Shown: positions 14,632 to 36,600 of the stretch, one piece after another
Position numbering within the stretch: position 1 is the first letter of the stretch
How the letters are laid out: each line of letters starts with the position of its first letter
Source: Campylobacterota bacterium
GTDB lineage: Bacteria; Campylobacterota; Campylobacteria; Campylobacterales; Sulfurimonadaceae
Direction of reading: 5' to 3'
DNA length: 48,030 nucleotides
Assembly (NCBI GenBank): GCA_023379705.1
Contig: JAMCPS010000133.1
Location: 1-48,030, forward strand
Notes under the pieces: model-generated
The model's database searches: none
What the model was told of the DNA's origin: nothing
Seen by the model: only the letters and a program-made list of their open reading frames with translations
Position numbers and translations under genes: made by a program

Positions 14632-14640
14632 GGGCGAAAG

Positions 14641-16035: not shown

Positions 16036-16062
16036 AAGGGTGTGAAAATTAATGGAGAAACA

Positions 16063-18240: not shown

Positions 18241-18259
18241 TTTTTTAGCTCCTCCCCAT

Positions 18260-18265
18260 TATAAT
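18260..18265 (+). promoter_or_regulatory. -10 box of the atpE promoter
   Basis: TATAAT lies 68 bases before the atpE ATG in the gap after pnp. A separate promoter is expected because the c subunit is needed in many copies per ATP synthase. The long leader holds no other obvious motif. Confidence 0.5.
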
Positions 18266-18332
18266 TCCGTCTACAAAGTGATAAGTAGGGAAACTATCCG
18301 AACAGACTTTGACTTAAATACGGAGATTACTC

Positions 18333-18710
18333 ATGAAAAAAGTTCTATTTCTTATGACTGCACTTGTTGCTGCAGCATTTGGTGCTGAAGACGCTGTAGC
18401 AGTTGTTGAAACTGCTGTTGAAGCTGCACCTGCAGTAGCGGCTGCAACTGGTGATGTTGCAAACCAAACTCTTAAAGCGTACTCAATGATCGCTGCGGGT
18501 GTTGGTCTTGGTTTGGCTGCACTTGGTGGTGCTATTGGTATGGGTAACACTGCTGCTGCAACTATCGCAGGTACTGCACGTAACCCAGGTCTTGGCGGAA
18601 AATTGATGACTACTATGTTCATCGCTTTAGCTATGATCGAAGCACAGGTTATCTATACATTGGTAATCGCTCTTATCGCTCTTTACGCTAACCCTTATTT
18701 AGTAGCGTAA
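18333..18710 (+). CDS. atpE: ATP synthase F0 subunit c
   Basis: The proton-carrying ring subunit of F1F0 ATP synthase, 125 residues. Two membrane helices form the hairpin: AAGVGLGLAALGGAIGMG (about 52-69) with the glycine-rich packing motif, and the second helix with the proton-binding Glu in MIEAQVIYTLV (about 97-107). The conserved RNPG loop is present. The protein is longer than the usual 75-80 residues because the first about 20 residues read as a signal peptide (MKKVLFLMTALVAAAFGAED), followed by an Ala/Val-rich stretch. Helicobacter c subunits have a comparable leader. The gene is separate from other atp genes and next to pnp. Confidence 0.96.
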   Translation: MKKVLFLMTALVAAAFGAEDAVAVVETAVEAAPAVAAATGDVANQTLKAYSMIAAGVGLGLAALGGAIGMGNTAAATIAGTARNPGLGGKLMTTMFIALAMIEAQVIYTLVIALIALYANPYLVA

Positions 18711-18726
18711 GTTCGGCTTTCTTTTA

Positions 18727-18746
18727 GAATCAGCTTTTGCTGATTC
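18727..18746 (+). terminator. Hairpin after atpE
   Basis: GAATCAGC (18727-18734) pairs perfectly with GCTGATTC (18739-18746) around TTTT. It lies 17 bases after the atpE stop and just before the tRNA gene. The following bases (ACCTTTCTTAT) are only moderately T-rich, so termination may be partial. Confidence 0.6.
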
Positions 18747-18757
18747 ACCTTTCTTAT

Positions 18758-18842
18758 GCGGTCGTGGTGGAACGGTAGACACGCTACCTTGAGGTGGTAG
18801 TGCCTTACGGGTGTGGGGGTTCAAATCCCCCCGACCGCACCA
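18758..18842 (+). tRNA. tRNA-Leu (anticodon GAG)
   Basis: A complete 85-base tRNA gene with encoded CCA. The acceptor stem GCGGTCG (18758-18764) pairs with CGACCGC (18832-18838), and CCA is at 18840-18842. The anticodon stem CTACC/GGTAG encloses the loop TTGAGGT with anticodon GAG at 18791-18793. A long variable arm, as in class II leucine tRNAs, precedes a T-arm with the loop TTCAAAT. The 3' end of this gene is duplicated at 29955-29981, which marks it as the likely integration site of a genomic island. Confidence 0.96.
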
Positions 18843-18850
18843 TCTTTTAA
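18834..18850 (+). repeat. Putative att site, tRNA-side copy
   Basis: ACCGCACCATCTTTTAA, covering the end of the tRNA acceptor stem, CCA and eight flanking bases, is repeated exactly at 29965-29981. The match extends upstream with AATCCCC (18824-18830) after three mismatched bases, giving 24 identities in 27. Direct repeats of a tRNA 3' end at both edges are the classical mark of site-specific integration. Confidence 0.7.
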
Positions 18851-18880
18851 ATTTAATATACATTCTTTTTTTCCCCATAC

Positions 18881-19100
18881 TTAATTGGTAACGATCTGTT
18901 CATCTGTTATCTCTTTAAATTCTTTCTCTTTTTGGAAATATTCCTGTACCAATCCATTCGTATATTCATTCAGCACTTGTTCCCATGACTGGTATGGATG
19001 TGCAAAGTAGAAATTAGTCTTTTGAACTTTGCTGATAGGCAAACTTTTTAGGAGTATCACTCGTAATGATGAGGGCATACTGCTTATCGGTTTCATCAGG
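18881..19100 (-). pseudogene. IS30-type transposase remnant, frameshifted
   Basis: The C-terminal end of a DDE transposase resembling the IS30 family. One frame holds NFYFAHPYQSWEQVLNEYTN followed by GLVQEYFQK and ITDEQI, matching the usual block that contains the catalytic Glu. Just upstream, in another frame, the codons read ALIITSDTPKKFAYQQ, equivalent to the ITSDNGKEFA block that contains a catalytic Asp. The change of frame around 19030-19040, with loss of the segment between the blocks, and the absence of the N-terminal two thirds show that it is dead. It lies 38 bases from the tRNA-Leu gene, inside the edge of the putative island. Inverted ends of an IS were not found. Confidence 0.75.
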
Positions 19101-19146
19101 TCAGGGATGGCTTGTTATACATTTCGTAACATAAGCGTAATAATTT

Positions 19147-19159
19147 GAATGTAACATTC
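19147..19159. promoter_or_regulatory. Palindrome upstream of the TonB2-like operon
   Basis: GAATGT-A-ACATTC has perfect 6-base arms around a single central base, 24 bases before the start of the first gene of the operon. It is a possible repressor site. No clear -10/-35 pair can be assigned; TAATAATTT at 19138-19146 just before it is a candidate -10. Confidence 0.35.
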
Positions 19160-19182
19160 GCAAAATACTTTCTGGAGTACAA

Positions 19183-19962
19183 ATGTTTGAAAATAAAAAA
19201 AAGGGTGTTGTCTCTTTAGCACTGAGTTGTTTAATGCTTTCATCTCCCCTGTTAGCCGTACAAAGTAATGAAGAGATGGTTCAATCCGTAATGAAACTGC
19301 GTTCCGAAGTAGAATCGCTTTATTCTAAGATCGATGAAAACAAAGAGAACTATAAATCTCAAATGAAATCGCTCTCTTCTCAAAGCTCAGATAATAAAGC
19401 ACAGCTCAATCGTCAAACAACTTCTAAGAAGTTAGCTCAACTGGAGCTTTCCAAGGTGAAGTCCAATATAGCTATGGCATCTGGGAAAAATATTGAGCTG
19501 ACACCTTTGTTAGAAAATGGAATGGCTTTACTCAAAGAGAATATTCGTAATGGAATCCCGTTTAAAGTAGAAGAGCGCCTTGCTGGTGTGAACAAAATAC
19601 AACAACAGCTTAATGATAAGTTGATCACTCAAGAAAAAGCACTATCATTGGTGTGGGCAGGGTTTGACGATAACCTACGTATGACCAAAGAGATCGGAGT
19701 GTTCAAGCAAGAGATCGTTTTGGATAATAAAAAAGTACTATGTGAAATCGGAAAAATTGGGACAGTTATGATGTTTTTTGCTACAGCCGATAATCGTTTA
19801 GGTTATGTCGTCAAAGAAGGTAACAGTTACAAATATAAGGTAACACAAGATAAAAACGAGAAAGAAAAAATTGCTGCATTGTTCAATGCGTTGAAATTGC
19901 AGATTCGAACAGGGTATTTCCAACTTCCAAATGCCTTGGTAATGATGGAGGGTGGAAAATGA
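19183..19962 (+). CDS. DUF3450 family periplasmic protein of a TonB2-type system
   Basis: A predicted periplasmic protein of 259 residues with a signal peptide (VVSLALSCLMLSSPLLAVQS). A long coiled coil follows (about 30-95; RSEVESLYSKIDENKENYKS), then a globular part with RNGIPFKVEERL and a C-terminal RTGYFQLPNALVMMEG. Length and pattern match DUF3450, which occurs as the first gene of TonB2 energy-transduction operons in marine Gammaproteobacteria. Here too it is followed by a TtpC-like channel protein whose start codon overlaps its stop (ATGA). It probably works with that partner in the periplasm; its precise role is not known. Confidence 0.83.
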   Translation: MFENKKKGVVSLALSCLMLSSPLLAVQSNEEMVQSVMKLRSEVESLYSKIDENKENYKSQMKSLSSQSSDNKAQLNRQTTSKKLAQLELSKVKSNIAMASGKNIELTPLLENGMALLKENIRNGIPFKVEERLAGVNKIQQQLNDKLITQEKALSLVWAGFDDNLRMTKEIGVFKQEIVLDNKKVLCEIGKIGTVMMFFATADNRLGYVVKEGNSYKYKVTQDKNEKEKIAALFNALKLQIRTGYFQLPNALVMMEGGK

Positions 19963-21278
19963 ATAAATTAGTAACAGCCATATTAGCGGCAGCTTTAGGA
20001 TTTGGATCAGCACATGCGGACGAAATTACCAATGCGTATGCAAAAGAGTATGCGTTTTTGAAAGCACAAAAAACTGAATTGCAAAATCGCCTGCAAAAAG
20101 AGAAAAAAGAGCAAGATTTACAAATCGCAAAGCTAAATCAAGAAGTCAGCGGACTTCAAGAACAGTATATTCAAGCAACACGATCCACGGATGCATTGCA
20201 AATGGACGTAAAAAAAACATCAGAAACACTTGACGATGCAACCGGTAACAAGGAAATCGTTTCAAGCGTAGCAATACAGGTAAAAACAGCACTCAGTGAC
20301 TATGGTAGCCCTATTAAAAATGAGTCTATTTCCGATTTGGCCGCAATCGAGCTTGCTTTTAGCGAATCATCACGATTATTTAAAGAGCTTTCGTCGATCC
20401 GTAAAACAAAAGGAGAGTTTTTTCTTCAAGACGGCACCAGCGTTTCAGGCGAGATTGTTCGTGTCGGGAATGTAGCCGCATATGGTATTTCGGCACAAGG
20501 AGCAGGAACGCTTGCTCCGGCGGGGAATGGGACATATAAGCTTTGGAATAAACAAGGACCACAAAGCGAAGCAAAAATGTTAGCCGATGGCAAAATGCCG
20601 GAAGAATTGAATATATTTATTTATGAAACATTAGATAAAGAAGTTGAATTTGAAAAAGAAAAAACATTAAGTGATGTATTAAAAGCGGGTGGTCCAATTG
20701 GGTATTCCATTGTCGCACTTGGATTTTTAGGGTTGTTTTTAGTCATATTACGAGCGCTATTTCTTTACCGTGCAGGTTCTGATGATAAAAAAATTACCCA
20801 GATTGTTTATGAAAAACTAGAAAATGAAAATGCACAAAAAGCTCTTGAAGCGATTGCTTCTTACAAAGGTTCAGCTGCTCGTGTAATTAAATCAGCACTA
20901 CGAAATGTTGGTAGAGATCGCGAACATGTCGAAGACATTGTTATGGAGAGTATTTTAAGTGAAAGTGCTCCACTGGATCGCTTCGGTGGATTTATTTTAG
21001 TACTTGCATCTGTTGGACCATTGTTAGGATTACTTGGTACGGTTACGGGGATGATTGCTACATTTGATAGCATCACTGAGCATGGAACAAGCGATCCAAA
21101 GCTTTTATCCGGTGGTATTTCTGAAGCGTTAGTAACGACTGAATTGGGGCTAATAGTGGCAATACCGTTGCTATTGTTTGGAAACCTGCTCAGCGGATGG
21201 GCAAATAACATTAAAGATGCCATGGAACACGGTGCACTGCATGTAATTAATCTTTATGAGAAAAATCAGGCAAAATAA
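19959..21278 (+). CDS. TtpC-like MotA/TolQ/ExbB proton channel protein with long periplasmic domain
   Basis: A 439-residue member of the ExbB/TolQ superfamily with an N-terminal extension. Residues 1-20 are a signal peptide (AAALGFGSAHADE). Residues about 25-110 are strongly coiled coil. A periplasmic domain continues to about 235. The channel part begins with the helix GPIGYSIVALGFLGLFLVIL (about 246-265), then a cytoplasmic loop, and ends with GPLLGLLGTVTGMIATFD and ALVTTELGLIVAIPLLL, the conserved ExbB helix pair. TtpC of Vibrio has this layout and is essential for TonB2 function. It overlaps the DUF3450 gene by four bases and the next exbB by one. Confidence 0.9.
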   Translation: MNKLVTAILAAALGFGSAHADEITNAYAKEYAFLKAQKTELQNRLQKEKKEQDLQIAKLNQEVSGLQEQYIQATRSTDALQMDVKKTSETLDDATGNKEIVSSVAIQVKTALSDYGSPIKNESISDLAAIELAFSESSRLFKELSSIRKTKGEFFLQDGTSVSGEIVRVGNVAAYGISAQGAGTLAPAGNGTYKLWNKQGPQSEAKMLADGKMPEELNIFIYETLDKEVEFEKEKTLSDVLKAGGPIGYSIVALGFLGLFLVILRALFLYRAGSDDKKITQIVYEKLENENAQKALEAIASYKGSAARVIKSALRNVGRDREHVEDIVMESILSESAPLDRFGGFILVLASVGPLLGLLGTVTGMIATFDSITEHGTSDPKLLSGGISEALVTTELGLIVAIPLLLFGNLLSGWANNIKDAMEHGALHVINLYEKNQAK

Positions 21279-21898
21279 TGGAGCCTATTTTTCAGAGCTT
21301 AACGTTTTTTGTTACGTTTATGAACAACGGCGGGGGGGCGATTATGTGGCCCCTTTTTGTACTCAATTTTATTTTATGGTATGCGATTGGACACCGTTTC
21401 CTAGTTTTACGGCGGGGGAGACAAGGAAATGTACGTTACTTGATAGAAAAGTATGAAACTAAAAAAGAGGAAGAAGAGATTAAGGGAATAGTTGATTGCG
21501 TTGTAATTGACTCCTTGAATACCTATGAAGAGGTAAAAAATCTGAACTTATTACCTCGTCGTCACATTGAGGATGCGATGTTTCCGTATGTACGCGGAAT
21601 ACGAGAATATTCGATTTTGATTAAAACAATTGTTGTTTTGGCACCATTGATTGGGTTGCTTGGAACCGTTAGTGGGATGATCGAGACGTTTGATGCGCTT
21701 CAATCAAGCAGTGGATTGTTTGGACAGGGGGCGAGTATCTCCAGCGGGATATCCAAAGCGCTTTTCACAACTGAGCTGGGATTGGTTGTGGCGGTTCCAG
21801 GCATTATTTTAGGAAAAATATTGGATAAAAAAGAGGAAATGTACTCTTTGGAATTTGAACAAATAAAAGACATTATATGCACAAAGGATAATTCATGA
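21278..21898 (+). CDS. exbB: ExbB2-like biopolymer transport proton channel
   Basis: A 206-residue inner-membrane protein of the ExbB/TolQ family. The first helix lies at about 20-38 (GGGAIMWPLFVLNFILWYAI). The cytoplasmic domain follows, and the conserved two-helix block is at about 118-185 (VVLAPLIGLLGTVSGMIETF and LFTTELGLVVAVPGIILG). It would form the proton channel with ExbD that energises TonB. The start codon overlaps the preceding stop by one base (TAATG), and its stop overlaps exbD by four bases, so translation is tightly coupled. Having a second ExbB-type protein beside a TtpC-like one is the signature of TonB2 systems. Confidence 0.92.
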   Translation: MEPIFQSLTFFVTFMNNGGGAIMWPLFVLNFILWYAIGHRFLVLRRGRQGNVRYLIEKYETKKEEEEIKGIVDCVVIDSLNTYEEVKNLNLLPRRHIEDAMFPYVRGIREYSILIKTIVVLAPLIGLLGTVSGMIETFDALQSSSGLFGQGASISSGISKALFTTELGLVVAVPGIILGKILDKKEEMYSLEFEQIKDIICTKDNS

Positions 21899-22299
21899 GA
21901 CTGCGACAAAAAAATCATCACGTGGATTCGTTGGATCTGTCACCGTTAATTGATATGGTTTTTATCTTGCTTATCTTTTTCATGGTTACGACGACGTTTG
22001 TCAAAGACATGAAAGTGGATCTCAACCGTCCTGCAGCGGCTTCAGCTTCAGCATCAGACGCTAAAACTATACGTGTTTATATTGACAGTGCCAATGAAGT
22101 GTATGTGGACAATCAACCTATAAAAGTGTGGGCTTTGCAATCCAAATTACGAGACATGCTTCGTTCTTCCACAGAGAAATCGGTTTTAGTGGTTTCAGAT
22201 TCCAATATACCAGTCAACTCGCTGATCGATGTAGTGGATGAGTGTCGTATGAGCGGTGCAAAAGAAGTTGCTGTTTCGACGACCAAAGAGATAGGGTAA
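21895..22299 (+). CDS. exbD: ExbD-type biopolymer transport protein
   Basis: A 134-residue protein with a short cytoplasmic N-terminus, one membrane helix (about 18-36, SPLIDMVFILLIFFMVTTTF) and a periplasmic domain. The Asp in LIDMVF is the conserved residue that carries protons in ExbD and TolR. The periplasmic part contains IRVYIDSANEVYVDNQPI and VLVVSDSNIPVNSLIDVVDE, as usual for the family. It sits between exbB (four-base overlap) and tonB (three-base gap), in the order of TonB2 operons. Confidence 0.94.
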   Translation: MRLRQKNHHVDSLDLSPLIDMVFILLIFFMVTTTFVKDMKVDLNRPAAASASASDAKTIRVYIDSANEVYVDNQPIKVWALQSKLRDMLRSSTEKSVLVVSDSNIPVNSLIDVVDECRMSGAKEVAVSTTKEIG

Positions 22300-22302
22300 A
22301 GA

Positions 22303-22929
22303 ATGATTTACAACAATAAAAAAACGAAATCAATTTTTCCTGTTTTTATTGGATTAATTGGCTCGTTGGTGATGGTTTTATTGATCGTGGTACTTAATCG
22401 CCCAGTAGATAAAAAAGAAGAAGTGATAGTAACTAAAAGCAGGATCTTGGATGTAAAACGACAGAGTCAAATACAACAAGCTCAGGCTAAACCTGAGCCT
22501 AAGCCTGAACAAAAACAGGCTCAAGCGAACAATAATGCACTTCCAAATATTGGCTCTATGCTTGGGGGAATTGCGATGAATATTCCAGAACTATCTTTTG
22601 GAGGCTTTATGCAAGATGCGGCATCACTGCTGGAACAAGCTGGAGATGAGAGTGAGGGAAATGCTGATACTCCACCTAAAGTGGTTACGCGTACCGAGAT
22701 GGAATATCCAAGCAATGCTGCTAAAGAGGGTCTGCACGGGTATGTTGTAGTCAATCTTTTAATCAATACTGATGGTAATGTTGAGATGGTTAAAGTACTG
22801 GAGTCTCAGCCGTCAGGCGTATTTGATGAAGCAGCAACCAGAGGGGTAAAAGATTGGAAATTTACACCTGGTAAAAATAAAGGAAAACCGGTTAAGTTGT
22901 GGGCAAAACAAAAGATCAAATTTAATTAG
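22303..22929 (+). CDS. tonB: TonB-family energy transducer
   Basis: A 208-residue protein that would transmit the proton gradient to outer-membrane receptors. It has a short cytoplasmic start, one helix (about 14-32, VFIGLIGSLVMVLLIVVLN), a Pro/Lys/Gln-rich linker (AKPEPKPEQKQAQ), a Gly/Met-rich middle part, and a C-terminal TonB domain (about 128-208) with YPSNAAKEGLHGYVVVNLLI, LESQPSGVFDEAA and DWKFTPGKNKG. The linker is short, as in TonB2 proteins. It is the fifth gene of the operon and distinct from the TonB at 32829-33512. Confidence 0.93.
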   Translation: MIYNNKKTKSIFPVFIGLIGSLVMVLLIVVLNRPVDKKEEVIVTKSRILDVKRQSQIQQAQAKPEPKPEQKQAQANNNALPNIGSMLGGIAMNIPELSFGGFMQDAASLLEQAGDESEGNADTPPKVVTRTEMEYPSNAAKEGLHGYVVVNLLINTDGNVEMVKVLESQPSGVFDEAATRGVKDWKFTPGKNKGKPVKLWAKQKIKFN

Positions 22930-22938
22930 GACTGTATT

Positions 22939-24210
22939 GTGATAAAAAAAATTCTACTGGTATTGATGCTAATGGTGTGTGCAAATAGTGCAGATGAAAA
23001 TACCAAAACAGGTGAAGTTGATCATATGGCTATTGCGATAGCAATGGTTTATGATGGAAAATATGATGCTGCTAAATCGGAATTGGACCTAGTCGATATC
23101 AATTCTTCAGAGTTGGATCGTGCTAAATTTTATACAATAAAAGGGACGTTGGCATCTAAAACAAACCTGCATGAACAAGCCGTAGAAAATTTTATTAAAG
23201 CGATTGATGAAACCAAAAAATTGGTGTATTTTTCCCCTAAAGAAGCTCAAGATAAAAAGCGTAAGTACCTTTTTAAAATCGGCAGCAAATCAAAGGTAGT
23301 GCAAGAGATCAAAATTGATCCTGAGTTTGAACGTAATAAAGAAATAAAAATTGAACGTCTATATGCCTATATTTCACAATCTTATTACAAATTAAAAGAG
23401 TATAAAAAAAGCGTTGAAGCGCTCGATTTGTCTGGTGAAAATGGACGAAATAAGTCTGGATTATTTGCTTTTAGGGCAGATTGTTATTGGAAAGTTGGTG
23501 AGCATTCTAATGCGATGGAAGCGCTCAATTACGGTTATAAAAAATTCTCTGATGTTCAATTGCTTAAACAAAAGTATTTTTATTTGTCTGAACTCAAGCT
23601 ATATAAGGCAGCAGTAGAAACAGCCAAGGTTTACATTGATAAAGCAGGAAAAAAAGAAGATGATTATCTTTATCTTGCACAAATGTTAATACAGGCCAAA
23701 CAAACAGAAGATGCGATAATGATTCTTGAAGAGGGGAAAATGATTTTTCCATCCAATCCAACATTTGGACTTATGTTGACCAATGTGTATCTTAAAAAAG
23801 AGATGCCTCACACTGGTGCAACGATCTTGGAGAACACTGCCAATATAGATCAAAAATATCTTAAAGACTCTGTTGAGGCTTTTCGCCAAGTCAAAGATTA
23901 TTCGCATGCTTTATATCTTAATTTACATGTAGTAGATCAAAAAGACAACATTAAACAAAAAATTGCGATGCATTTAGAGAGAGGTGAGTTTGAGCAAATT
24001 ACCGGTCTAAAAGACGCGATGATGAGAAATGGGATGCATGATGATGAAAATATGATCTATGTACTAGCCTATTCATATTATATGGTTGGAGATTATGAAA
24101 ATGCAGAGATATACCTGCAGTTGATAAACGATAATGATCTGTTTCAAAAAGCGACAATTATCCGAAAGAATATTGAAAAATGTAAAGTTAATCCAAGGGA
24201 GTGTGTCTGA
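22939..24210 (+). CDS. Tetratricopeptide-repeat protein of the TonB operon
   Basis: A predicted exported protein of 423 residues. The signal peptide is MIKKILLVLMLMVCANSADE, starting at a GTG. The rest is helical with TPR-like repeats, for example IAMVYDGKYDAAKSELDLV, LHEQAVENFIKAI, YKLKEYKKSVEALDL, LYKAAVETAKVYIDKAGK and the last YMVGDYENAEIYLQLI. TPR proteins recur as the last partner of TonB2 clusters, probably as periplasmic scaffolds. It follows tonB by nine bases, and its stop overlaps the receptor start (TGATG), tying it to the receptor. Confidence 0.87.
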   Translation: MIKKILLVLMLMVCANSADENTKTGEVDHMAIAIAMVYDGKYDAAKSELDLVDINSSELDRAKFYTIKGTLASKTNLHEQAVENFIKAIDETKKLVYFSPKEAQDKKRKYLFKIGSKSKVVQEIKIDPEFERNKEIKIERLYAYISQSYYKLKEYKKSVEALDLSGENGRNKSGLFAFRADCYWKVGEHSNAMEALNYGYKKFSDVQLLKQKYFYLSELKLYKAAVETAKVYIDKAGKKEDDYLYLAQMLIQAKQTEDAIMILEEGKMIFPSNPTFGLMLTNVYLKKEMPHTGATILENTANIDQKYLKDSVEAFRQVKDYSHALYLNLHVVDQKDNIKQKIAMHLERGEFEQITGLKDAMMRNGMHDDENMIYVLAYSYYMVGDYENAEIYLQLINDNDLFQKATIIRKNIEKCKVNPRECV

Positions 24211-27200
24211 TGAAACGATTGTTCGGTGCTATTTTTATCGTTTTAGGGGTAGTATCGCCCCTGTTTGGTGATGCTGTTGGAACTTTTAGCCTTTATATAT
24301 TTAATCAAGGAACCGCATTGGCGAACAATGAGGTACGACTTGATAGACAGAACAGCTACTATACCGATAAGGATGGTAGTTTAAGAATAGAGCTCTCTTT
24401 GGGTAAGCATCAAGTTGAGGTGTTTGCAAAAAATAAACAAGGAAGCAATCTAGGCTACTCGAAAAAACAAGTGGAGATAAAAGAGGGAAAAAATACCCAA
24501 TTGATTGTCTCATTTGAAAATGAAAAGGAACCAAGTCTATTACTTGAAACACCGGATGATAATAAAGAGAGCGGAATTAAAAAAATAGATACAACGAAGA
24601 TGGGAATACTAAAAGGGGTAGTATTGAGTGATGATAAGCGTCATCCTATTGCTAATGCTCGCCTATTTGTCAAAGGGACATCTATTGATGTGCGAAGTGA
24701 TACGAATGGCCATTTTTCTTTGTCGATTCCTGCGGAACAAAATATTTCTATATCGGTAGTGCACTCTGAGTATAGTTCAAAAACATTGAATAATCTTGTT
24801 GTAGCAAAAGGTGTTGTAAAAGATCAAAATGTTTTATTAACACCTGCTAGTGTTGAACTTGAAGAATTTGTGGTATTGGCCCCTAAAGTCGGCGGATCTA
24901 TCAGCAGTGTTATGCTGGAAGAAAAAGAGAGTCAATCTATTTCGAACATCTTAAGTTCTGAAGAAATGTCGAAAAAGGGAGATAGCGACGCTGCTGCGGC
25001 ACTAAAACGTGTAACGGGAGTCACTCTTATAGGTGGAAAAAGTATTTATGTACGTGGTCTTGGGGATCGTTATTCGAATATCGAGATGAACTCCATGCCT
25101 ATTCCATCACCGGATCCTACTAAGCGTGTTGTTCCGTTGGACATCTTTTCATCAGGTGTTATTGAATCAATGAAGGTACAAAAAAGTGGTACACCTGATG
25201 TTCCAGCCAGTTTTGGTGGTGGATATATCGATATACGTACTAAACATGATGCGAACGACAACTATCTTAGAGTCTCAATGGAGACTAAAGGCAATTCAAA
25301 TACGGGGAAAAGTGTTGATGGATATCAAGGTGGAGGATCGGACTGGAAAGGGTTTGATGATGGATACCGAGCAATACCGGCAGAGATTTTAAATAATTCT
25401 CAGGTTGTGGTAGGAGAGCGTATGAAAGCCTTTACTACATCCTATTTTACGCAAGATGAGTTGTCAAAATTTACCCAAAATTCTCTCACAAGAAATTATG
25501 ATGTTACTCAAACTAAACTTCCTTATGGGTTTAAGGGTTTTATTGAAGGGGCCTACAAACTACAGCTTGATGATAAGAACAAAATCAGTTTTTTTGGAAA
25601 CTATGGATATGAGCAGGATCATAAATTTAGAGAAGAGTCGTATGCACGGTATGAATATGACCAAGCTACGGGTGAACTCGAAATAGAGCCACAACAGTAT
25701 GGTACGTTGCGCAATACCACAAGTAAATATAAGCATGCTGCCTTATTCAATCTTGGATATAACTATGATGATGTGTTGAAGCTTCAATACACTAAACTTT
25801 ATTCGCATAATGCGGATGATTCTACTAGGATAGCCAGTGGGATCATGGGATCAAATGATGAAAATATGACCAGATACTATTTGGATTGGGAAGAGCGTAC
25901 ACTTGATGTCAATCAGATCAACGGGACATTTGATTATCTTTTATATGACCATCCATCGACTTTGACATTTGGTATTGAGGAGGCTGCTTCTAAGCTCTAT
26001 CAACCGAATAATTATCAGTATGTCTATCGAAATGAAGGGGTGCCGTATTTGGATAATAGAATATCCAATAATATTGCCAACAATCTTCAATCCGATGATG
26101 AGGTTTCAGCTTTTTATGTTACTAATAAATTAAACTATGAAATCTTTTCACCTGAAGATTATCTTGAAGTGGGTATTGCAGTAAGCAGTAAACAACGCAA
26201 ATCCCGACAAAACAAATATTATTTGCGTAAACTTGGTGGTTCTTCGATAGTGGATGATATTGATATGACGGGAAGTATCGAATCAATTTATGATGAATAT
26301 GTTCGTGCAGATATTCCCTATAATGAGAGACCGTTTATTGTAGGGCAGTTATTTAATCCAGCAGATTATTTTGACGCTGAGGTGGATGAGAAAAGTTATT
26401 ATGTAAGTGCATTTTTGAATCCTACGAAACAGATTGAAATGCTGGTTGGATTTCGCGATGTCGGATTTGAGCAAGTCGTGTATCAGTATAAAGAGGATCG
26501 TGAAAATCCTGACATGACAAAGCGCCGTCTAATCCAAAGGATACCCGAATCGTTGACTTTAAATGGTATTTTTCCAAGTATAAGTTTGAAATACAAAGTG
26601 GATGATAAAAACCATATCGATACGGCGATTTCAAAAACTTATATTGTTCCTGATTTACGGGAGTTTACGGATGGCGAATATTTTCACCCTTATGATGTTG
26701 CAACGGTTGTAGGTAATCCTGAACTTAAAAACACCAATATATATAGTATCGATTTGAAATACAGCCATTTTTTCTCCGATACGGAAAATATTAAATTTGG
26801 ACTTTTTTATAAATTGTTGGATAAACCGATAGAAGATGTTCAAATTCCATCTTCTTCATTACCCATCTATTCCTTTGACAATGCCGATTCGGCTACTCTG
26901 TATGGATTTGAAGTCGATGGACGGAAAGAGCTTGATTTTATTTCTTCTATGCTGAATGGGTATTTTATTTCAGGAAATTTTTCTTACACCGATTCAGACG
27001 TAACGCTTAGAAAAGAGCAAGAGGCTATCTATACCAATAATCATCGACAGCTACAAGGGCTTTCTCAAACGGTTTTGAACTTTTCATGCGGCTATGAGAC
27101 ATCGGAGCGCTCGGCAGTCTTTTCATACAATCAAATGGGAGAACGTATCCGTAAAGTTGGTATGATTGATGATATTGAACGTTTTCCTGATATTTATGAG

Positions 27201-27377
27201 TTTCCAGCGTCGGTATTAGACTTTGTTTGGATGGAGAAATTCACCCCATCCTTCAGTGGTCAACTTAAACTTCAAAATATTTTAGATGAAGAGACCATAT
27301 GGAAACAAGGCGGTCGTGTTACCAACCGTTATAAACTTGGTCAAAATTTTTCTTTTGGTATCACTTACAAATATTAA
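24210..27377 (+). CDS. TonB-dependent outer-membrane receptor
   Basis: A receptor of 1055 residues. After the signal peptide (MKRLFGAIFIVLGVVSPLFG) comes an Ig-like peptidase-regulatory segment (about 15-100), then a second carboxypeptidase-regulatory-like domain (about 130-215, with GVVLSDDKRHPIANARLFVK). The plug follows (about 220-345; AAALKRVTGVTLIGGKSIYV, then SGTPDVPASFGGGYIDIRTK). The rest is the 22-strand barrel, ending in the aromatic GITYKY. I chose the ATG at 24210, which overlaps the TPR stop and has AAGGGAG upstream, over a GTG nine bases earlier. Two N-terminal domains and a long barrel are typical of receptors for large or polymeric ligands, but the ligand cannot be read from sequence. 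Confidence 0.94.
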   Translation: MKRLFGAIFIVLGVVSPLFGDAVGTFSLYIFNQGTALANNEVRLDRQNSYYTDKDGSLRIELSLGKHQVEVFAKNKQGSNLGYSKKQVEIKEGKNTQLIVSFENEKEPSLLLETPDDNKESGIKKIDTTKMGILKGVVLSDDKRHPIANARLFVKGTSIDVRSDTNGHFSLSIPAEQNISISVVHSEYSSKTLNNLVVAKGVVKDQNVLLTPASVELEEFVVLAPKVGGSISSVMLEEKESQSISNILSSEEMSKKGDSDAAAALKRVTGVTLIGGKSIYVRGLGDRYSNIEMNSMPIPSPDPTKRVVPLDIFSSGVIESMKVQKSGTPDVPASFGGGYIDIRTKHDANDNYLRVSMETKGNSNTGKSVDGYQGGGSDWKGFDDGYRAIPAEILNNSQVVVGERMKAFTTSYFTQDELSKFTQNSLTRNYDVTQTKLPYGFKGFIEGAYKLQLDDKNKISFFGNYGYEQDHKFREESYARYEYDQATGELEIEPQQYGTLRNTTSKYKHAALFNLGYNYDDVLKLQYTKLYSHNADDSTRIASGIMGSNDENMTRYYLDWEERTLDVNQINGTFDYLLYDHPSTLTFGIEEAASKLYQPNNYQYVYRNEGVPYLDNRISNNIANNLQSDDEVSAFYVTNKLNYEIFSPEDYLEVGIAVSSKQRKSRQNKYYLRKLGGSSIVDDIDMTGSIESIYDEYVRADIPYNERPFIVGQLFNPADYFDAEVDEKSYYVSAFLNPTKQIEMLVGFRDVGFEQVVYQYKEDRENPDMTKRRLIQRIPESLTLNGIFPSISLKYKVDDKNHIDTAISKTYIVPDLREFTDGEYFHPYDVATVVGNPELKNTNIYSIDLKYSHFFSDTENIKFGLFYKLLDKPIEDVQIPSSSLPIYSFDNADSATLYGFEVDGRKELDFISSMLNGYFISGNFSYTDSDVTLRKEQEAIYTNNHRQLQGLSQTVLNFSCGYETSERSAVFSYNQMGERIRKVGMIDDIERFPDIYEFPASVLDFVWMEKFTPSFSGQLKLQNILDEETIWKQGGRVTNRYKLGQNFSFGITYKY

Positions 27378-27395
27378 TAGTCCTATTGTTTTATC

Positions 27396-27429
27396 GGCCA
27401 GATAGAGTGTCATCTGGCCATTTGATTCT
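27396..27429 (+). terminator. Terminator-like hairpin after the receptor gene
   Basis: GGCCAGAT (27396-27403) pairs perfectly with ATCTGGCC (27412-27419) around an eight-base loop, 19 bases after the receptor stop, followed by ATTTGATTCT. It probably ends the TonB2-like operon. Confidence 0.65.
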
Positions 27430-27508
27430 GCATAACACTTCATATTCTGAATAAGCTGTCAAGTTACATTTAATACATAACATGAAAATAAATTAAAGTC
27501 TAAATCAC

Positions 27509-27514
27509 TATAAT
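27509..27514 (+). promoter_or_regulatory. -10 box of the small lipoprotein gene
   Basis: TATAAT lies 47 bases before the ATG at 27561, in an otherwise AT-rich gap (27430-27560) in which nothing else stands out. Confidence 0.45.
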
Positions 27515-27560
27515 ATTTTTGTGATCTCTTTACAATATTCAAATAAAAGGGGGGGATATT

Positions 27561-27731
27561 ATGCCTCTAATCAAAATTGTTTTACTTATGTCTACAGGTT
27601 TAATACTTATAAATGGGTGTGCATTAGCTAATATAGGTTCTACAAGAGATAATGAGTCTAGTTCTAAAATAACTAAAAAGGGATTAACTGAAAAAGATGG
27701 GGGAGAAGTCTGGACTCATTTTGCTCAATAG
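27561..27731 (+). CDS. Small predicted lipoprotein
   Basis: A short gene of 56 residues. It starts MPLIKIVLLMSTGLILINGC, a basic start, hydrophobic core and lipobox ending in Cys20, so the mature protein would be a 37-residue lipid-anchored peptide rich in Ser, Lys, Thr and Glu. A strong purine run (AAAAGGGGGGGAT) precedes the ATG, and TATAAT lies 47 bases upstream. I recognise no family. It lies alone between the receptor operon and the convergent beta-helix gene. Confidence 0.62.
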   Translation: MPLIKIVLLMSTGLILINGCALANIGSTRDNESSSKITKKGLTEKDGGEVWTHFAQ

Positions 27732-27863
27732 ACGATCGATTATATCGATTCTAACTAGTGAATAATTCCGAATGAACTTGTCAGCTGCCATTGTAATTTA
27801 ATGAAATAGATCAATCATAAAAAAGATTTACGAGGTAAGATGAAATAATGAAGAAAAGACATA

Positions 27864-27889
27864 TTCAGATCACCTATTTGTGATCTGAA
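27864..27889 (-). terminator. Terminator of the beta-helix gene
   Basis: TTCAGATCAC (27864-27873) pairs perfectly over ten bases with GTGATCTGAA (27880-27889), with a six-base loop. Read on the minus strand it lies 14 bases after the stop of the beta-helix gene and runs into a T-rich tail (TATGTCTTTTCTTC). Confidence 0.75.
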
Positions 27890-27903
27890 GTTGACGTGAT
27901 AAA

Positions 27904-29142
27904 TTAAGCTACTACGATACCAGTATCGACAACAGCCGAAAGACCTACTAAAGTAACATTACCTGTTCCTGCAGTAAATTGTGCTTGTAGTGCAGTTGCT
28001 ACAGGTCCAGTGAAATCTGCATCAGTTGATGTACCTTTGATAGTAACATTTGTGAACGTTGTTCCAGCCGTATTGGCACCTGAATTATCAGAGTGAATCG
28101 CTCCATATTGAGTCGTAGAGCTAACATTATCAATAATCGTTGCATTTTTAATCGTACCACCGATGCCGGCACCTTTAAAGAAGATACCACCCTCTTTGTT
28201 AGAGGCATTTTGAGTAATTGTCAACCCATCAAATGTCGCTGAAGTTGTACCGGACATTTCGATTCCAGCATTTCCAGATGTTTGTGTAATTGTTAAATTC
28301 GTAACAGTTCCAGAGTAGCCATCATCGATATCGAAGTGATCATCCGTAGCACGAGTGATCGTAATGTTACTAAGATTAACTGTTCCACCCCATTGTTCGA
28401 TACCATCATCATCGGAATTGTCGATAGTGATATTGCTAATCGTCGTTCCAGAACCAACACCTACAAGGCTAAGACCATTGATCTCTTTGTCTTGCTCCAT
28501 TGTGATACCGGAGTTATAAATTTTAACGTGATTAAGAATACCCGAGTTATCTGCCAAATTACTTGTACCAGCCGTGTAAGCTGTATTAACTTCATAAGCA
28601 TTTACTTGTGAATTACCGGCGTTTCCGATGATTGTGACACCACCCCATTGTCCTACAGCTGCTGCAGCACCATCGTGTGCTTTTTCAGAAGTGAAAATAA
28701 TAGGAGCCGTTGCCGTTCCCTGTGCATCGATTTTTGACCCTTTATCGATGATAAGATACGATGTTGCTGATCCTGTCCCGTCTTTACCTACGATTGTAGT
28801 ACCTGCTTGGATTGTCAAAGTAGCGCCGTTTTTAACAGCTACTAGTCCATCCAAAACCCATACTTTATCATTGGTTAAGGTCATACTTGTAGTAATATCG
28901 CCTGATAAAGTTTGTTTTGTGTTTACAGTGTCCAAAACACCAAAGCCTAGATTATTTTCTTGCCAAAACTGCTTCACAACAGAAGCGTTTACATTTACAA
29001 TTTCTCCAAGCATATCGTTTGTTACACCAAATGTTTTGCATGTATCAAATATTGTTGATGGATTTGATATATTGCTCATAATGTAATCATAAGCTTGCTG
29101 GACTGTAACACCTTTACTTGCTAAATGCGTTTGTGCTGACAT
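27904..29142 (-). CDS. Right-handed beta-helix repeat protein, probably secreted without signal peptide
   Basis: A 412-residue protein from the ATG at 29142, chosen because AAGGTGAAG precedes it (the longer GTG start adds three residues). Residues about 1-60 are a compact helical domain (GVTVQQAYDYIMSNISNPST and TFGVTNDMLGEIVNVN). From about 75 it becomes a Thr/Asn/Gly/Ser-rich beta-helix with motifs of a widespread surface-protein type: GTTIVGKDGTGSATSYLIID, GSKIDAQGTATAPIIFTSE, GQWGGVTIIGNA, IDNSDDDGIEQWGGTVNLSN and the acidic DDHFDIDDGYSG. There is no Sec signal or anchor. The hydrophobic end (AVVDTGIVVA) would suit type I secretion, but no exporter is adjacent. Lysine is scarce, as in exported proteins. 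Function unknown. Confidence 0.83.
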   Translation of the reverse strand: MSAQTHLASKGVTVQQAYDYIMSNISNPSTIFDTCKTFGVTNDMLGEIVNVNASVVKQFWQENNLGFGVLDTVNTKQTLSGDITTSMTLTNDKVWVLDGLVAVKNGATLTIQAGTTIVGKDGTGSATSYLIIDKGSKIDAQGTATAPIIFTSEKAHDGAAAAVGQWGGVTIIGNAGNSQVNAYEVNTAYTAGTSNLADNSGILNHVKIYNSGITMEQDKEINGLSLVGVGSGTTISNITIDNSDDDGIEQWGGTVNLSNITITRATDDHFDIDDGYSGTVTNLTITQTSGNAGIEMSGTTSATFDGLTITQNASNKEGGIFFKGAGIGGTIKNATIIDNVSSTTQYGAIHSDNSGANTAGTTFTNVTIKGTSTDADFTGPVATALQAQFTAGTGNVTLVGLSAVVDTGIVVA

Positions 29143-29368
29143 GATCTTCACCTTTTTTTTTTAAATTTCAACATAATTGTATATTTTTAATATTACAGCG
29201 GTGTTACAGTGCAATTTGTATATTGACATCCACATAAGGTTACTTATATTTGTTCTCTAAAAAATCTTTTTATCATATTTGTGTAAAAAAAATGTAAAGA
29301 GATTAAGGAAATACTTTAGAGATAGTAGGTAGAATTAACCAACAAAACAAACTCAAAGGAAGAAATAC

Positions 29369-29956
29369 ATGACAAAAACAATACTTTCAGTGTTGCTATC
29401 AACACTAACGGTTATGCTAATGAGTGGATGTACCACAATGGGGAATATGATGTCTATGGCACCAGCATTTGCAAGTTTGGAATCAAATACACAAGCGTCA
29501 TATGTGAAAATGTTGGATGTGGTTGATGAATCGGGTGATCCTGCTAAAGCGATGATGATTGAAGAAAAAATCTTAGATGATGTTTCTAATGATCAGGCAG
29601 TAGATTCGATTAAAGCCATTACAGAAGAGCGTAATATGGTGGTAACGGGTGACGTTAAAATGTACACCAAAGCGGATGCAGGACCAAAAGAGGTTAAGCA
29701 TGCACGTATTATCTCTGTATGTAATTTACAAACTGCAAAAATATTTTTAAATCATTCCCGATATTACGGCGGCTTTATGCCATGTCGAATTATGTTGGTT
29801 GAATATGGTAATGGTGAGCGCTTTTTGGTTACCATGGACTTGACATTAGCAATTTATGGTGGTAAACCACTTCCTCCAGAGATGTTAAAACAAGCTCTTG
29901 TTGTTAAAGAAACAATGGAAACCTTAATCGCAAAAGGAGCAAAAGGGGATTTCTAA
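29369..29956 (+). CDS. DUF302-domain lipoprotein
   Basis: A predicted lipoprotein of 195 residues. The signal LLSTLTVMLMSGC ends in a lipobox with Cys21. The C-terminal half matches the DUF302 pattern: ISVCNLQTAKIFLNHSRYYG (about 114-133) followed by PCRIMLVEYGNGERFLVTMD and a Pro-rich LPPEM. DUF302 folds can bind small ligands, but the role is not defined. A good ribosome site (AAAGGAAG) precedes the ATG. The last codons overlap the second copy of the tRNA 3'-end repeat, so this gene marks the right edge of the putative island. It is divergent from the beta-helix gene; the 217-base gap between them is AT-rich and carries no other gene. Confidence 0.82.
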   Translation: MTKTILSVLLSTLTVMLMSGCTTMGNMMSMAPAFASLESNTQASYVKMLDVVDESGDPAKAMMIEEKILDDVSNDQAVDSIKAITEERNMVVTGDVKMYTKADAGPKEVKHARIISVCNLQTAKIFLNHSRYYGGFMPCRIMLVEYGNGERFLVTMDLTLAIYGGKPLPPEMLKQALVVKETMETLIAKGAKGDF

Positions 29957-29981
29957 TCCCCTTAACCGCACCATCTTTTAA
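29955..29981 (+). repeat. Putative att site, distal copy of the tRNA-Leu 3' end
   Basis: AATCCCC, three differing bases, then ACCGCACCATCTTTTAA repeat the tRNA-Leu end at 18824-18850 with 24 of 27 bases identical. The preceding GGGGATTTCTAATCCCC even resembles a T-arm. The two copies lie 11,131 bases apart in the same orientation. The copy begins within the stop codon of the DUF302 gene. Confidence 0.7.
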
Positions 29982-30061
29982 TACTCCATTCATAAATAAA
30001 AATATCCTTCTAAGTCCATTTGGGTTACCATCTAGCAATATTACAGCTTAAAGGTAAATTG

Positions 30062-30970
30062 ATGAAGAAAATAATCATATTGTGTGCATTGGCCGCAGTC
30101 CATCTGTTTGGTTGGGACGCATTGCAAAGCACAGCACAAGTGGCAAGCCAGTTAAATGATCCCAAAGTCATTATTATCGATGTATCAGAGGCTGAAACGT
30201 ACAGCAAAGAAGGGCACATTCATGGGGCTTATCATACCAGTATCGGGCAGTGGAGAACTCTGCATGAAAAACACTTTTTGATTAAAACTCCGGATGAAAT
30301 ACAAACTCTTATACGTTCATTAGGGATAAACAGCGATTCGAATGTTATCTTATATGGGCATCTAGGCTCCGCAAAAGATTTGCTTGCAAGTACCTATATT
30401 TATTGGGCGATGAAATATAGCGGTGTTCAAAATGTTGCCATTATGGATGGTGGACTGGAGCAATGGAAAGCTGAAAAACGTTTTGTGGTAAGCGACAATC
30501 CAACAGCTTCTGTAGGAAATTTTACCGTAAAGAGCACACCTGAAATGGTAGCCAATTTAGCATACGTCAAACAAAATATTGGGAAAATTCCGATGTTGGA
30601 TGCGCGTCCCGCGGAGATTTATTTTGGAGTAACGGCATCCAGCGGGGTTGAAAAGTTTGGTCATATTCCAGGAGCTATGAGCTATTTTTGGACTTACAGT
30701 ATCACTCCAGAATTAAAAGTGAAGCCATCTGAAACGCTTAAAAAGATTTTTAGCGAAGGATTTGGTTTGAGACAAAATCAAGAAATACTTGTTTATTGTA
30801 CCGGTGGTCTTGAAACCTCTTTTAACTATTTTGTTTTGAGCGGTATTTTGGGCTATACCAATGTACGATTGTACGACGGATCGATGCGCGAATGGGGTAA
30901 TCGACAAGATACCCCAATGGTTCAGCATAAATGGGAAACGTTTCATCCTACGATTGAAGTGATCAAGTAG
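30062..30970 (+). CDS. Periplasmic sulfurtransferase, double rhodanese domain
   Basis: A 302-residue exported protein with a signal peptide (MKKIIILCALAAVHLFGWDA). The N-terminal rhodanese domain (about 20-145) has the fold motifs VIIIDVSEAETYSKEGHIHG and IMDGGLEQWKAE, but its active-site loop (YGHLGSAK) has no cysteine. The C-terminal domain (about 155-295) carries the catalytic Cys246 in VYCTGGLETS. The enzyme would move sulfane sulfur between carriers such as thiosulfate and thiols. I chose the ATG at 30062 with AAAGG upstream; a TTG at 30020 adds 14 residues in front of the signal peptide. It is the first gene outside the putative island. Confidence 0.9.
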   Translation: MKKIIILCALAAVHLFGWDALQSTAQVASQLNDPKVIIIDVSEAETYSKEGHIHGAYHTSIGQWRTLHEKHFLIKTPDEIQTLIRSLGINSDSNVILYGHLGSAKDLLASTYIYWAMKYSGVQNVAIMDGGLEQWKAEKRFVVSDNPTASVGNFTVKSTPEMVANLAYVKQNIGKIPMLDARPAEIYFGVTASSGVEKFGHIPGAMSYFWTYSITPELKVKPSETLKKIFSEGFGLRQNQEILVYCTGGLETSFNYFVLSGILGYTNVRLYDGSMREWGNRQDTPMVQHKWETFHPTIEVIK

Positions 30971-31002
30971 GGGAAAATTTGAGGAATTTTTAAAGGCTTT
31001 GG

Positions 31003-31008
31003 TATAAT
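31003..31008 (+). promoter_or_regulatory. -10 box for the acidic-protein/exonuclease pair
   Basis: TATAAT lies 28 bases before the ATG at 31036, with GAGGAG as ribosome site between. Confidence 0.55.
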
Positions 31009-31035
31009 AGTACACTTACAATACGAGGAGCAATT

Positions 31036-31380
31036 ATGGCTTATATTGAGCAACTAAAGCATTTAATAGAGAATGAACTTATTCCTGACGTTGAGGATCA
31101 CGTTGACGAACTTTTTGAGGGAATCGCATCGGCAAAAGATGCAACTACCGATGAGCGCACACAGCTAGAAGATATGCAGGCGCTTCGCGATGAGTATAAA
31201 GAATTACTTAAAGAACTCAAAAGCGGCGATATTGACGAAGAAGAAGCGGAACAGCTGTATACGGAACTCACGGCAATGCGCAATGTGGGGGAAGACGATG
31301 ATGACTATTATGACGAGGAAGAGGAAGAAGACGAGGATGATTACGATATCTTCGACCACGACAATAACGATCAGTACTAA
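31036..31380 (+). CDS. Very acidic small protein of unknown function
   Basis: A 114-residue protein with no family I recognise. The first 80 residues are helical and charged (IENELIPDVEDHVDELFEGI; YKELLKELKSGDIDEEEAEQ). The last 30 are almost only Asp, Glu and Tyr (DDDDYYDEEEEEDEDDYDIF). It has its own promoter and a GAGGAG ribosome site, and ends two bases before the exonuclease gene, so the two are probably made together. The acidic tail could mimic DNA or bind a basic partner or metal; that is speculation from composition. Confidence 0.78.
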   Translation: MAYIEQLKHLIENELIPDVEDHVDELFEGIASAKDATTDERTQLEDMQALRDEYKELLKELKSGDIDEEEAEQLYTELTAMRNVGEDDDDYYDEEEEEDEDDYDIFDHDNNDQY

Positions 31381-31382
31381 GG

Positions 31383-32135
31383 ATGGCGAAATACATACTT
31401 CTAGATACTGAAACAACAGGAACCGGGGAAGCTGACCGTATTATTCAGCTGGGTTTTTTGGTTCTCAACGGTAAGGCTGTTGATGTCTATAATGACTTCT
31501 GTTTTACGGACGTTCCTATTGCTTATCCTGCAATGGAAGTACATGGTATTACACCTGAAATGATTCAAGGAAAGCCTGTATGTGTTGATACGAGTGCGTT
31601 TAAAGCACTTGGTGAACTCAATACTCCCGACAATGTTCTCATAATCCATAATGCCCCATTTGATTTGGGGATGCTATCCAAAGAAAATTTCACTTCAAAA
31701 ATGCGCCTCATTGATACGCTTCGATGTGCTAAGCATCTTTTTGAAGATGAAGATGCGCATCGTCTTCAATATTTTCGCTATCGTCTGGAACTGTACAAAC
31801 AAGAAGAGGCAGAAGCCAGTGCTTTAGGCATTGTGGTTAAAGCACATGATGCGATTGGGGATGTACTGGTTCTCAAGCTTTTCTTAACCGAGTTGCGTAA
31901 AAAACTGGAAGAACGTTTTGGCAGTATTAATCCGATAGATAAAATGGTTGAACTCACCCAGACCCCTGTATTTTATACCAAACCATTAAAGTTTGGTAAG
32001 CACAAAGGAAAAACGCTTTTTGAAATCGTGACTGCCGACAAAGGATACCTGACATGGATGTTGGGAAACATGGATGGCCTCGACGACGACATGCGCTACA
32101 GTATCGAAAAGGTGTTGGCTTCCTATTGTGCTTAA
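31383..32135 (+). CDS. DnaQ-like 3'-5' exonuclease with C-terminal DUF3820 domain
   Basis: A 250-residue protein. The DEDDh exonuclease domain (about 1-180) has Exo I DTETTGTG with Asp8 and Glu10, Exo II HNAPFD, and Exo III HDAIGD with the catalytic His and Asp. After about residue 195 comes a short second domain, KFGKHKGKTLFEIVTADKGY-LTWML, which matches DUF3820, a small fold often attached to such exonucleases. It probably trims single-stranded 3' ends of DNA or RNA. It is separate from the polymerase III epsilon subunit. The neighbour upstream is the acidic protein, two bases away. The 170 bases after it (32136-32305) hold nothing I can name. Confidence 0.88.
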   Translation: MAKYILLDTETTGTGEADRIIQLGFLVLNGKAVDVYNDFCFTDVPIAYPAMEVHGITPEMIQGKPVCVDTSAFKALGELNTPDNVLIIHNAPFDLGMLSKENFTSKMRLIDTLRCAKHLFEDEDAHRLQYFRYRLELYKQEEAEASALGIVVKAHDAIGDVLVLKLFLTELRKKLEERFGSINPIDKMVELTQTPVFYTKPLKFGKHKGKTLFEIVTADKGYLTWMLGNMDGLDDDMRYSIEKVLASYCA

Positions 32136-32305
32136 GGTGTTTTGAAATGGACTTCTTTTGGTATTTATCTTGGAATAATGGATAATGAGCTGACATCTAT
32201 AGTTTTAAGGATATTTTAGATCCTTATTTGAACCATAAGATAAGGCGGAATAAGTCTGGTTATTAGAAAATAGACGATGAATAACAATCATAGTTTGTAT
32301 CCATC

Positions 32306-32749: not shown

Positions 32750-32828
32750 TATATTTTCCTATACAATTTTGATTGATTATATCATAGTAATCAAAAGTTT
32801 AAAAGGCTGTTTTAGTAGATATGGCTTC

Positions 32829-33512: not shown

Positions 33513-33531
33513 TTGCAGATTATATCGCTTA

Positions 33532-34014: not shown

Positions 34015-34087
34015 ATACTAATAAACAGAAAATCTTTTAGGTTTTGGTGTTAATGGATATTAAATAAATTAGGATTGAGAAAACGGT

Positions 34088-36573: not shown

Positions 36574-36600
36574 ATTATTTTCCTTGTATATTTTAGTTTT

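What the first reader, a model, noticed from the sequence alone, without database searches (positions are those of the whole stretch)
18824..29981. An 11.1 kb segment bounded by a duplicated tRNA-Leu 3' end: a probable genomic island carrying a TonB2-like system
The 3' end of tRNA-Leu(GAG) recurs 11,131 bases downstream in the same orientation: ACCGCACCATCTTTTAA exactly, plus AATCCCC after three mismatches (24 of 27). The segment between holds a dead transposase and accessory genes only, while synteny on the left (purD to atpE) is housekeeping. Integrases typically recombine at tRNA 3' ends and leave such direct repeats. No integrase gene is left, so the island would be fixed or mobilised in trans.
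Basis: partly seen in the sequence, partly recalled or inferred. Interest (0 to 1): 0.85.

Follow-up and report, generated by a model that had tools for sequence, protein, structure and literature searches.

The report
TonB gene island, tRNA repeat misread
A block of outer-membrane transport genes beside a tRNA gene in a Sulfuricurvum genome really is foreign, but it appears to have been swapped in from another Sulfuricurvum species by ordinary recombination of the surrounding DNA, and the repeated tRNA end that seemed to mark its borders is left over from an older insertion.

Summary
The repeat is real: ACCGCACCATCTTTTAA occurs exactly twice in the genome, at 18834 and 29965. The segment is strain-variable, low in GC, and holds a TonB2-like cassette (ttpB-ttpC-exbB-exbD-tonB-ttpD plus an Oar-like receptor). 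But the repeats are not the two ends of one integrated island. (1) Window and Sulfuricurvum sp. 17-40-25 (G005) are 99.5% identical over about 18175-29255, against about 80% on both sides; this tract starts upstream of the tRNA and ends before or within the start of DUF302. (2) G005 has the cassette but no right repeat. (3) The sister genome G032 has DUF302 and the right repeat (one mismatch) but no cassette. (4) Real integrated elements at this tRNA, including a filamentous-phage prophage in G017, repeat 20-23 bases of the tRNA; here only 9 tRNA bases match. So the cassette most likely arrived by double homologous recombination from a G005-like donor, and the right repeat is a scar, probably of an older DUF302-bearing insertion. 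The tRNA-Leu(GAG) interval is an integration hotspot in the genus. This is a known kind of event, cleanly dissected. One side lead may be new: a beta-helix protein accompanied this TonB cassette in all 45 testable loci.

The parts
18088..29255 (.). Recombined tract shared with G005 at 99.5% identity (outermost limits; core 18175-29171): end of the core gene before atpE, atpE, tRNA-Leu, TonB cassette, beta-helix gene
   Evidence: identity profile and difference positions
18758..18842 (+). tRNA-Leu(GAG), integration hotspot
   Evidence: ARAGORN; elements at the same tRNA in relatives
18834..18850 (+). Left copy of the 17-mer (9 tRNA bases plus 8 downstream); lies in the tract shared with G005
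18890..19120 (-). Remnant of an IS30-family transposase C-terminus, with stop and gaps
   Evidence: tblastn of the G032 IS30 transposase, E 3e-11
19183..19962 (+). DUF3450 protein (TtpB-like)
   Evidence: PF11932; order as in Vibrio tonB2
19959..21278 (+). Long MotA/TolQ/ExbB protein (TtpC-like)
   Evidence: PF01618
21278..21898 (+). ExbB
   Evidence: PF01618
21895..22299 (+). ExbD
   Evidence: PF02472
22303..22929 (+). TonB
   Evidence: PF03544; TIGR01352
22939..24210 (+). TPR protein (TtpD-like)
   Evidence: TPR families
24201..27377 (+). Oar-like TonB-dependent receptor with N-terminal CarboxypepD_reg domain
   Evidence: PF13715/PF13620 and PF07715
27561..27731 (+). Small lipoprotein-like ORF, counterpart after the receptor in G031
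   Evidence: read in sequence; no family hit
27904..29151 (-). Right-handed beta-helix protein, leaderless here
   Evidence: PF13229; AlphaFold2 pLDDT 85
29369..29956 (+). DUF302 protein; older resident, also in G032 and G031 without the cassette
   Evidence: PF03625
29965..29981 (+). Right copy of the 17-mer: scar of a tRNA 3' end, also in G032 with one mismatch, absent from G005
30020..30970 (+). Rhodanese gene, first gene to the right; next to the tRNA in empty sites of G029 and G033
   Evidence: PF00581

Best explanation
The 3' side of tRNA-Leu(GAG) is an integration hotspot in Sulfuricurvum where elements accumulate in layers. In the common ancestor of this genome and its sister G032 the site already held DUF302, followed by a tRNA-3'-end scar (the right repeat). 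Later, DNA from a lineage very close to Sulfuricurvum sp. 17-40-25 (G005) recombined with the chromosome by two homologous crossovers, one at the 3' end of the core gene before atpE and one just before or in the 5' end of DUF302. This replaced atpE and the tRNA and brought in the TonB2-like cassette with its receptor and beta-helix gene. The two repeats therefore come from two lineages and only look like an attL/attR pair. Shown: tract edges, identity jump, absence of the cassette in G032, absence of the right repeat in G005. Inferred: direction of transfer, route of entry (for example natural transformation), and IS30 as the agent that first brought the cassette to this tRNA. Function (inferred): the cassette energises an Oar-like outer-membrane receptor through its own TtpB/TtpC-ExbB-ExbD-TonB-TtpD motor, with the beta-helix protein handling the substrate.
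For: Identity window/G005 79.7% (8100-18087), 99.5% (18175-29171), 81.1% (30020-41760). G005 has the cassette but no right copy. G032, nearest relative outside the tract (92% over 1-18087), has DUF302 and ACCGTACCATCTTTTAA but no cassette; G031 has tRNA-DUF302-rhodanese. DUF302 body is nearest G032 (96.3%), its promoter is G005-like. The atpE haplotype of the tract is not sister to G032. Elements at the same tRNA repeat 20-23 tRNA bases ending at CCA, a different register. Empty sites G029, G033. No G005-like second copy of the flanks in the bin.
Against: Both genomes are metagenome bins (window bin: 7.9% contamination), so a chimeric contig is not fully excluded. Short exact shared stretches (44 and 83 bp) at the borders would serve an assembler as well as recombination. 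Direction rests on a poorly resolved tree. The origin of the right scar in a DUF302 insertion is inferred.
Confidence: 0.8

Rival explanations
1. One reading: the whole 11.1 kb (TonB cassette plus DUF302) is one island that an integrase inserted at the tRNA 3' end, leaving the 17-bp repeats as attL and attR; the integrase was lost, the sister G032 lost the cassette, and G005 got it from this lineage by recombination.
For: A 17-bp repeat of a tRNA end unique to this locus; integrated elements at the same tRNA in G017, G025, G032, G040; low GC.
Against: Needs extra loss in G032; the tract shared with G005 includes a foreign atpE haplotype in the window; the repeat register differs from the integrase-bounded elements; G005 and G031 have DUF302 without the right copy.
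Confidence: 0.1
2. Assembly artefact: the contig joins a G005-like strain's segment to the window species' chromosome.
For: Bin has 7.9% contamination in 183 contigs; near-identity to another bin's segment with sharp borders.
Against: Only one atpE-tRNA-Leu(GAG), one DUF302 and one such rhodanese gene in the bin; no G005-like flank sequence in the bin; clustered differences within the tract (22746-23421, 25742-25841); a second, older tract near G005 at 41965-45100, 94.9%.
Confidence: 0.1
3. The right copy is a chance resemblance and not a tRNA scar at all.
For: Part of the wider match (AATCCCC) overlaps the DUF302 stop codon; TCTTTT follows this tRNA in several genomes, so it is not a signature of one integration.
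Against: A 17-base match is expected about 3e-6 times in 48 kb; the copy is kept in G032; the sequence to its right resembles the tRNA-to-rhodanese junction of empty sites.
Confidence: 0.08

Closest known systems
[quoted passage not shown] 2017, PMC5635113)
   Same: Accessory block between core genes, no integrase, tract of near-identity running into the flanking core gene.
   Different: Here the exchange is between species about 80% identical in the flanks, one arm is an accessory gene (DUF302), and the site is also used by integrases.
TonB2 system of Vibrio (ttpB2-ttpC2-exbB2-exbD2-tonB2-ttpD2; PMC6957404)
   Same: Six genes of the same families in the same order; DUF3450 protein first, TPR protein after tonB.
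   Different: An Oar-like receptor and a beta-helix gene are attached; sequence similarity to the Vibrio proteins, iron regulation and substrate were not tested. In Vibrio TonB3 the receptor is at the start of the operon.
Oar/PopC system of Myxococcus (PMC6434023)
   Same: Receptor with CarboxypepD_reg extension plus Plug, served by a dedicated TonB system.
   Different: No protease partner; the beta-helix protein is the only candidate cargo and nothing shows that it is exported.
HxuA/HxuC of Haemophilus (PMC4873976)
   Same: A beta-helix protein next to a TonB-dependent receptor.
   Different: HxuA is exported by a two-partner system and acts on haemopexin; no HxuB here and no sequence match to any solved structure.
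tRNA-integrated filamentous phages (for example Pf phages; PMC7549136, title and abstract only)
   Same: The G017 element at this tRNA has tyrosine integrase, Rep, pIV-like secretin and Zot-like protein, bounded by a 23-bp tRNA repeat.
   Different: The window's segment has none of these genes; only the site is shared.

Membership tests
tRNA-integrated genomic island (attL/attR) | Direct repeats at both ends of the unit that is present or absent | tested here: not met
   Cassette ends before DUF302; G005 has cassette without right copy, G032 right copy without cassette
tRNA-integrated genomic island (attL/attR) | Repeat register as in other elements at the same tRNA | tested here: not met
   20-23 tRNA bases in G017 and G032; 9 here
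tRNA-integrated genomic island (attL/attR) | Integrase gene | tested here: not met
   None among the ORFs of the segment; integrases next to the tRNA in G017 and G040
tRNA-integrated genomic island (attL/attR) | Empty site in relatives | tested here: met
   G029, G033 and others
Hotspot cargo exchanged by flanking homologous recombination | Near-identity tract with borders in homologous flanks | tested here: met
Hotspot cargo exchanged by flanking homologous recombination | Flank haplotype groups with the donor, not with the sister | tested here: inconclusive
   Window and G005 identical over 18175-18760, both 92.9% to G032; tree weakly resolved within the clade
TonB2 (Ttp-type) system | Six-gene order ttpB-ttpC-exbB-exbD-tonB-ttpD | tested here: met
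   Pfam families and order against PMC6957404
TonB2 (Ttp-type) system | Iron (Fur) regulation and siderophore uptake | not testable with these tools
   Needs experiments
Oar-type TonB-dependent transporter | CarboxypepD_reg extension plus Plug domain | tested here: met
   Domain table; definition in PMC6434023

The most novel reading that the evidence does not exclude
The beta-helix protein is an undescribed fixed partner of Ttp-type TonB systems with an Oar-like receptor: a surface protein that binds or handles the substrate (as HxuA does), or is itself exported through the receptor (as proposed for PopC). It lies beside the cassette in 32 of 32 Campylobacterota-type loci and 13 of 13 mostly gamma- and deltaproteobacterial loci with enough upstream sequence, with an invariant acidic cluster (D248, D249, E252, D270, D271, D274). 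In Sulfuricurvum it has lost its lipoprotein signal and moved behind the receptor.
Probability: 0.4. Interest if true: 0.6.

Novelty: new member of a known kind. Interest (0 to 1): 0.4.

Why it matters
It shows how a convincing tRNA-end direct repeat can mislead. Comparison with a close sister and with another carrier of the same cargo separates an old attachment scar from the real borders of a transferred segment. It also documents recent exchange of a complete outer-membrane transport system between Sulfuricurvum species about 80% identical in the flanks, at a tRNA site used by filamentous phages, and it points to a conserved beta-helix companion of this transport system that deserves a test.

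Tried and rejected
Att-pair model for the two repeats: rejected on the G005/G032 pattern. tRNA-Arg(GCG) repeat around the G031 copy of the cassette: no second copy of that tRNA end found. Solved relatives of the receptor and the beta-helix protein: none by sequence; Foldseek gives only generic right-handed beta-helices with TM-scores below 0.4 to the query. NCBIfam gave no above-cut-off name except the TonB C-terminal domain. Literature: no held paper pairs beta-helix, TtpC and lipoprotein, and none of the hits for Sulfuricurvum plus genomic island looked, by title and abstract, to concern this site.

Full report
OBSERVATION. The repeat exists as described. ARAGORN places tRNA-Leu(GAG) at 18758-18842; ACCGCACCATCTTTTAA is at 18834 and 29965 on the same strand and nowhere else in the 2.30 Mb genome as an exact match. 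Across 41 genomes of the genus, allowing one mismatch, it occurs in only three: the window's genome (these two plus one unrelated place), G005 (once, at its tRNA-Leu) and G032 (once, at the counterpart of the right copy, ACCGTACCATCTTTTAA). The genus is Sulfuricurvum: G005 is Sulfuricurvum sp. 17-40-25 by its 228,728-base contig. Composition supports foreign DNA: GC 37.4% against 40.6-42.9% in 50 control windows of the same length, and a larger tetranucleotide distance than any control.

CONTENT. The segment holds an IS30 transposase relic; a DUF3450 protein, a long ExbB (TtpC-like), ExbB, ExbD, TonB and a TPR protein; a receptor with CarboxypepD_reg and Plug domains; a small lipoprotein-like ORF; a beta-helix protein on the other strand; and a DUF302 protein. 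The first six match the Vibrio tonB2 operon in families and order (PMC6957404). There is no integrase.

A TRUE HOTSPOT. In the genus, the interval between this tRNA and the next conserved gene (31036 in the window) is 109-304 bp in about 15 genomes and from about 1 kb to over 14 kb in others, with unrelated contents. G017 carries a 9.7 kb element bounded by a 23-bp exact repeat of the tRNA end, with integrase, Rep, pIV-like secretin and Zot-like protein, that is, a filamentous-phage prophage. G032 has a 20-bp repeat 5.1 kb downstream. G025 has a remnant with a 13-bp repeat, and G040 has the same kind of integrase in the same position. In G017 and G032 the repeat covers 20-23 bases of the tRNA and stops at CCA. 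The window's pair covers 9 tRNA bases plus 8 bases beyond, a different register.

THE REPEATS ARE NOT THE ENDS OF THE ISLAND. Four facts decide this. First, the window and G005 are 79.7% identical over 8100-18087, 99.5% over 18175-29171 and 81.1% over 30020-41760. The last dense differences on the left end at 18087, followed only by 18132 and 18174; on the right divergence returns from 29256. The shared tract thus includes the end of the core gene 16042-18240, atpE, the tRNA and the cassette, and stops before or within the start of DUF302. Second, G005 has the cassette but a different sequence after DUF302, with no tRNA-end copy. Third, G032, the nearest genome to the window outside the tract (92% over 1-18087), has DUF302 and the right copy with one mismatch but no cassette; G031 has tRNA-DUF302-rhodanese and no cassette at this site. 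Fourth, over 29413-29956 the window is closer to G032 (96.3%) than to G005 (91.7%), while the DUF302 promoter is G005-like, which places the right crossover there.

ORDER OF EVENTS. The simplest reading is layering. The empty state is tRNA-rhodanese (G029, G033; 92-96 bp) or, further out in the genus, tRNA followed by the 31036 gene. DUF302 came in next to the tRNA; in the window/G032 line its far end is marked by the tRNA-end scar. The cassette arrived between tRNA and DUF302 in the G005 line, or in a line close to it, and was passed to the window's line by two homologous crossovers. In the atpE part the shared haplotype does not group with G032, so the window is the more likely recipient; this step is inferred. 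The IS30 relic ends where cassette homology to G031 begins (19120), so IS30 may have helped the first insertion; this too is inferred. G031 has an 80%-identical cassette about 1.2 kb after a different tRNA, tRNA-Arg(GCG), a site that lacks it in G005, where the same right-hand gene follows the tRNA by about 0.9 kb. The cassette has thus come to rest near two tRNA genes, without a repeat of the tRNA end at the second.

CHIMERA CHECK. G005 is a metagenome bin, and the window's assembly has 7.9% contamination in 183 contigs. It has one atpE-tRNA-Leu(GAG), one DUF302 and one such rhodanese gene and no G005-like copies of the flanks tested. The tract also has clusters of differences from G005 at 22746-23421 and 25742-25841. 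A second tract near G005 (41965-45100, 94.9%, with a cobalamin-independent methionine synthase gene) suggests another, older exchange. A chimera is unlikely, but only reads can exclude it.

FUNCTION. By family knowledge the motor genes feed proton-motive force to the receptor. The substrate is unknown. The beta-helix protein is the most informative clue: it lies next to the cassette in 32 of 32 Campylobacterota-type loci (all upstream, same strand) and in 13 of 13 others with at least 3 kb of upstream sequence. These loci were picked by similarity to the ExbB, so they are one subfamily. Most Campylobacterota homologues begin with what looks like a lipoprotein signal; the window's copy is leaderless with a different N-terminal domain found in tandem in another protein of the genome, and G031's has RTX repeats. 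AlphaFold2 gives a confident beta-helix from about residue 81 to 400; Foldseek finds only generic beta-helix matches. A surface partner that handles substrate for the receptor, as HxuA does for HxuC (PMC4873976), is my preferred guess; export through the receptor, as proposed for PopC (PMC6434023), is the alternative. Both are inference.

VERDICT. It is an ordinary but well-resolved case of hotspot cargo exchanged by flanking recombination, with one side lead worth following.

Noticed in passing
L146 (G017:C6:148300-168200), about 1102-10762; also L166 (G040) and a remnant in L148 (G025): Filamentous-phage (inovirus-like) prophage integrated at tRNA-Leu(GAG) with a 23-bp repeat: integrase, Rep, pIV-like secretin, Zot-like protein.
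   Followed up: partly
window 27904-29151; loci L064-L142: A beta-helix protein, mostly a lipoprotein, is next to the Ttp-type TonB cassette in 45 of 45 testable loci; it is leaderless in the window and fused to RTX repeats in G031.
   Followed up: partly
L209 (G031:C12:58000-77500), 5384-17126: A second, 80%-identical copy of the cassette sits about 1.2 kb after tRNA-Arg(GCG) in G031, without a tRNA-end repeat; its second ExbB is only 54% identical to the window's, while the receptor is 82%.
   Followed up: partly
window 41965-45100: Second tract unusually close to G005 (94.9% against about 80%), covering a cobalamin-independent methionine synthase gene; not found at this place in the fetched region of G032.
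   Followed up: no
window 22746-23421 and 25742-25841: Clusters of differences from G005 inside the otherwise near-identical tract, in tonB/TPR and in the receptor gene; may be small later recombination patches.
   Followed up: no
window 32306-34014: Another TonB C-terminal protein (32829-33512) lies between two related unknown genes (32306-32749 and 33532-34014), a small variable cluster just right of the hotspot.
   Followed up: no
L203 (G000 contig C94), 1090-1770 minus strand: A 226-aa protein has two copies of the N-terminal domain of the window's beta-helix protein separated by a long acidic run.
   Followed up: no
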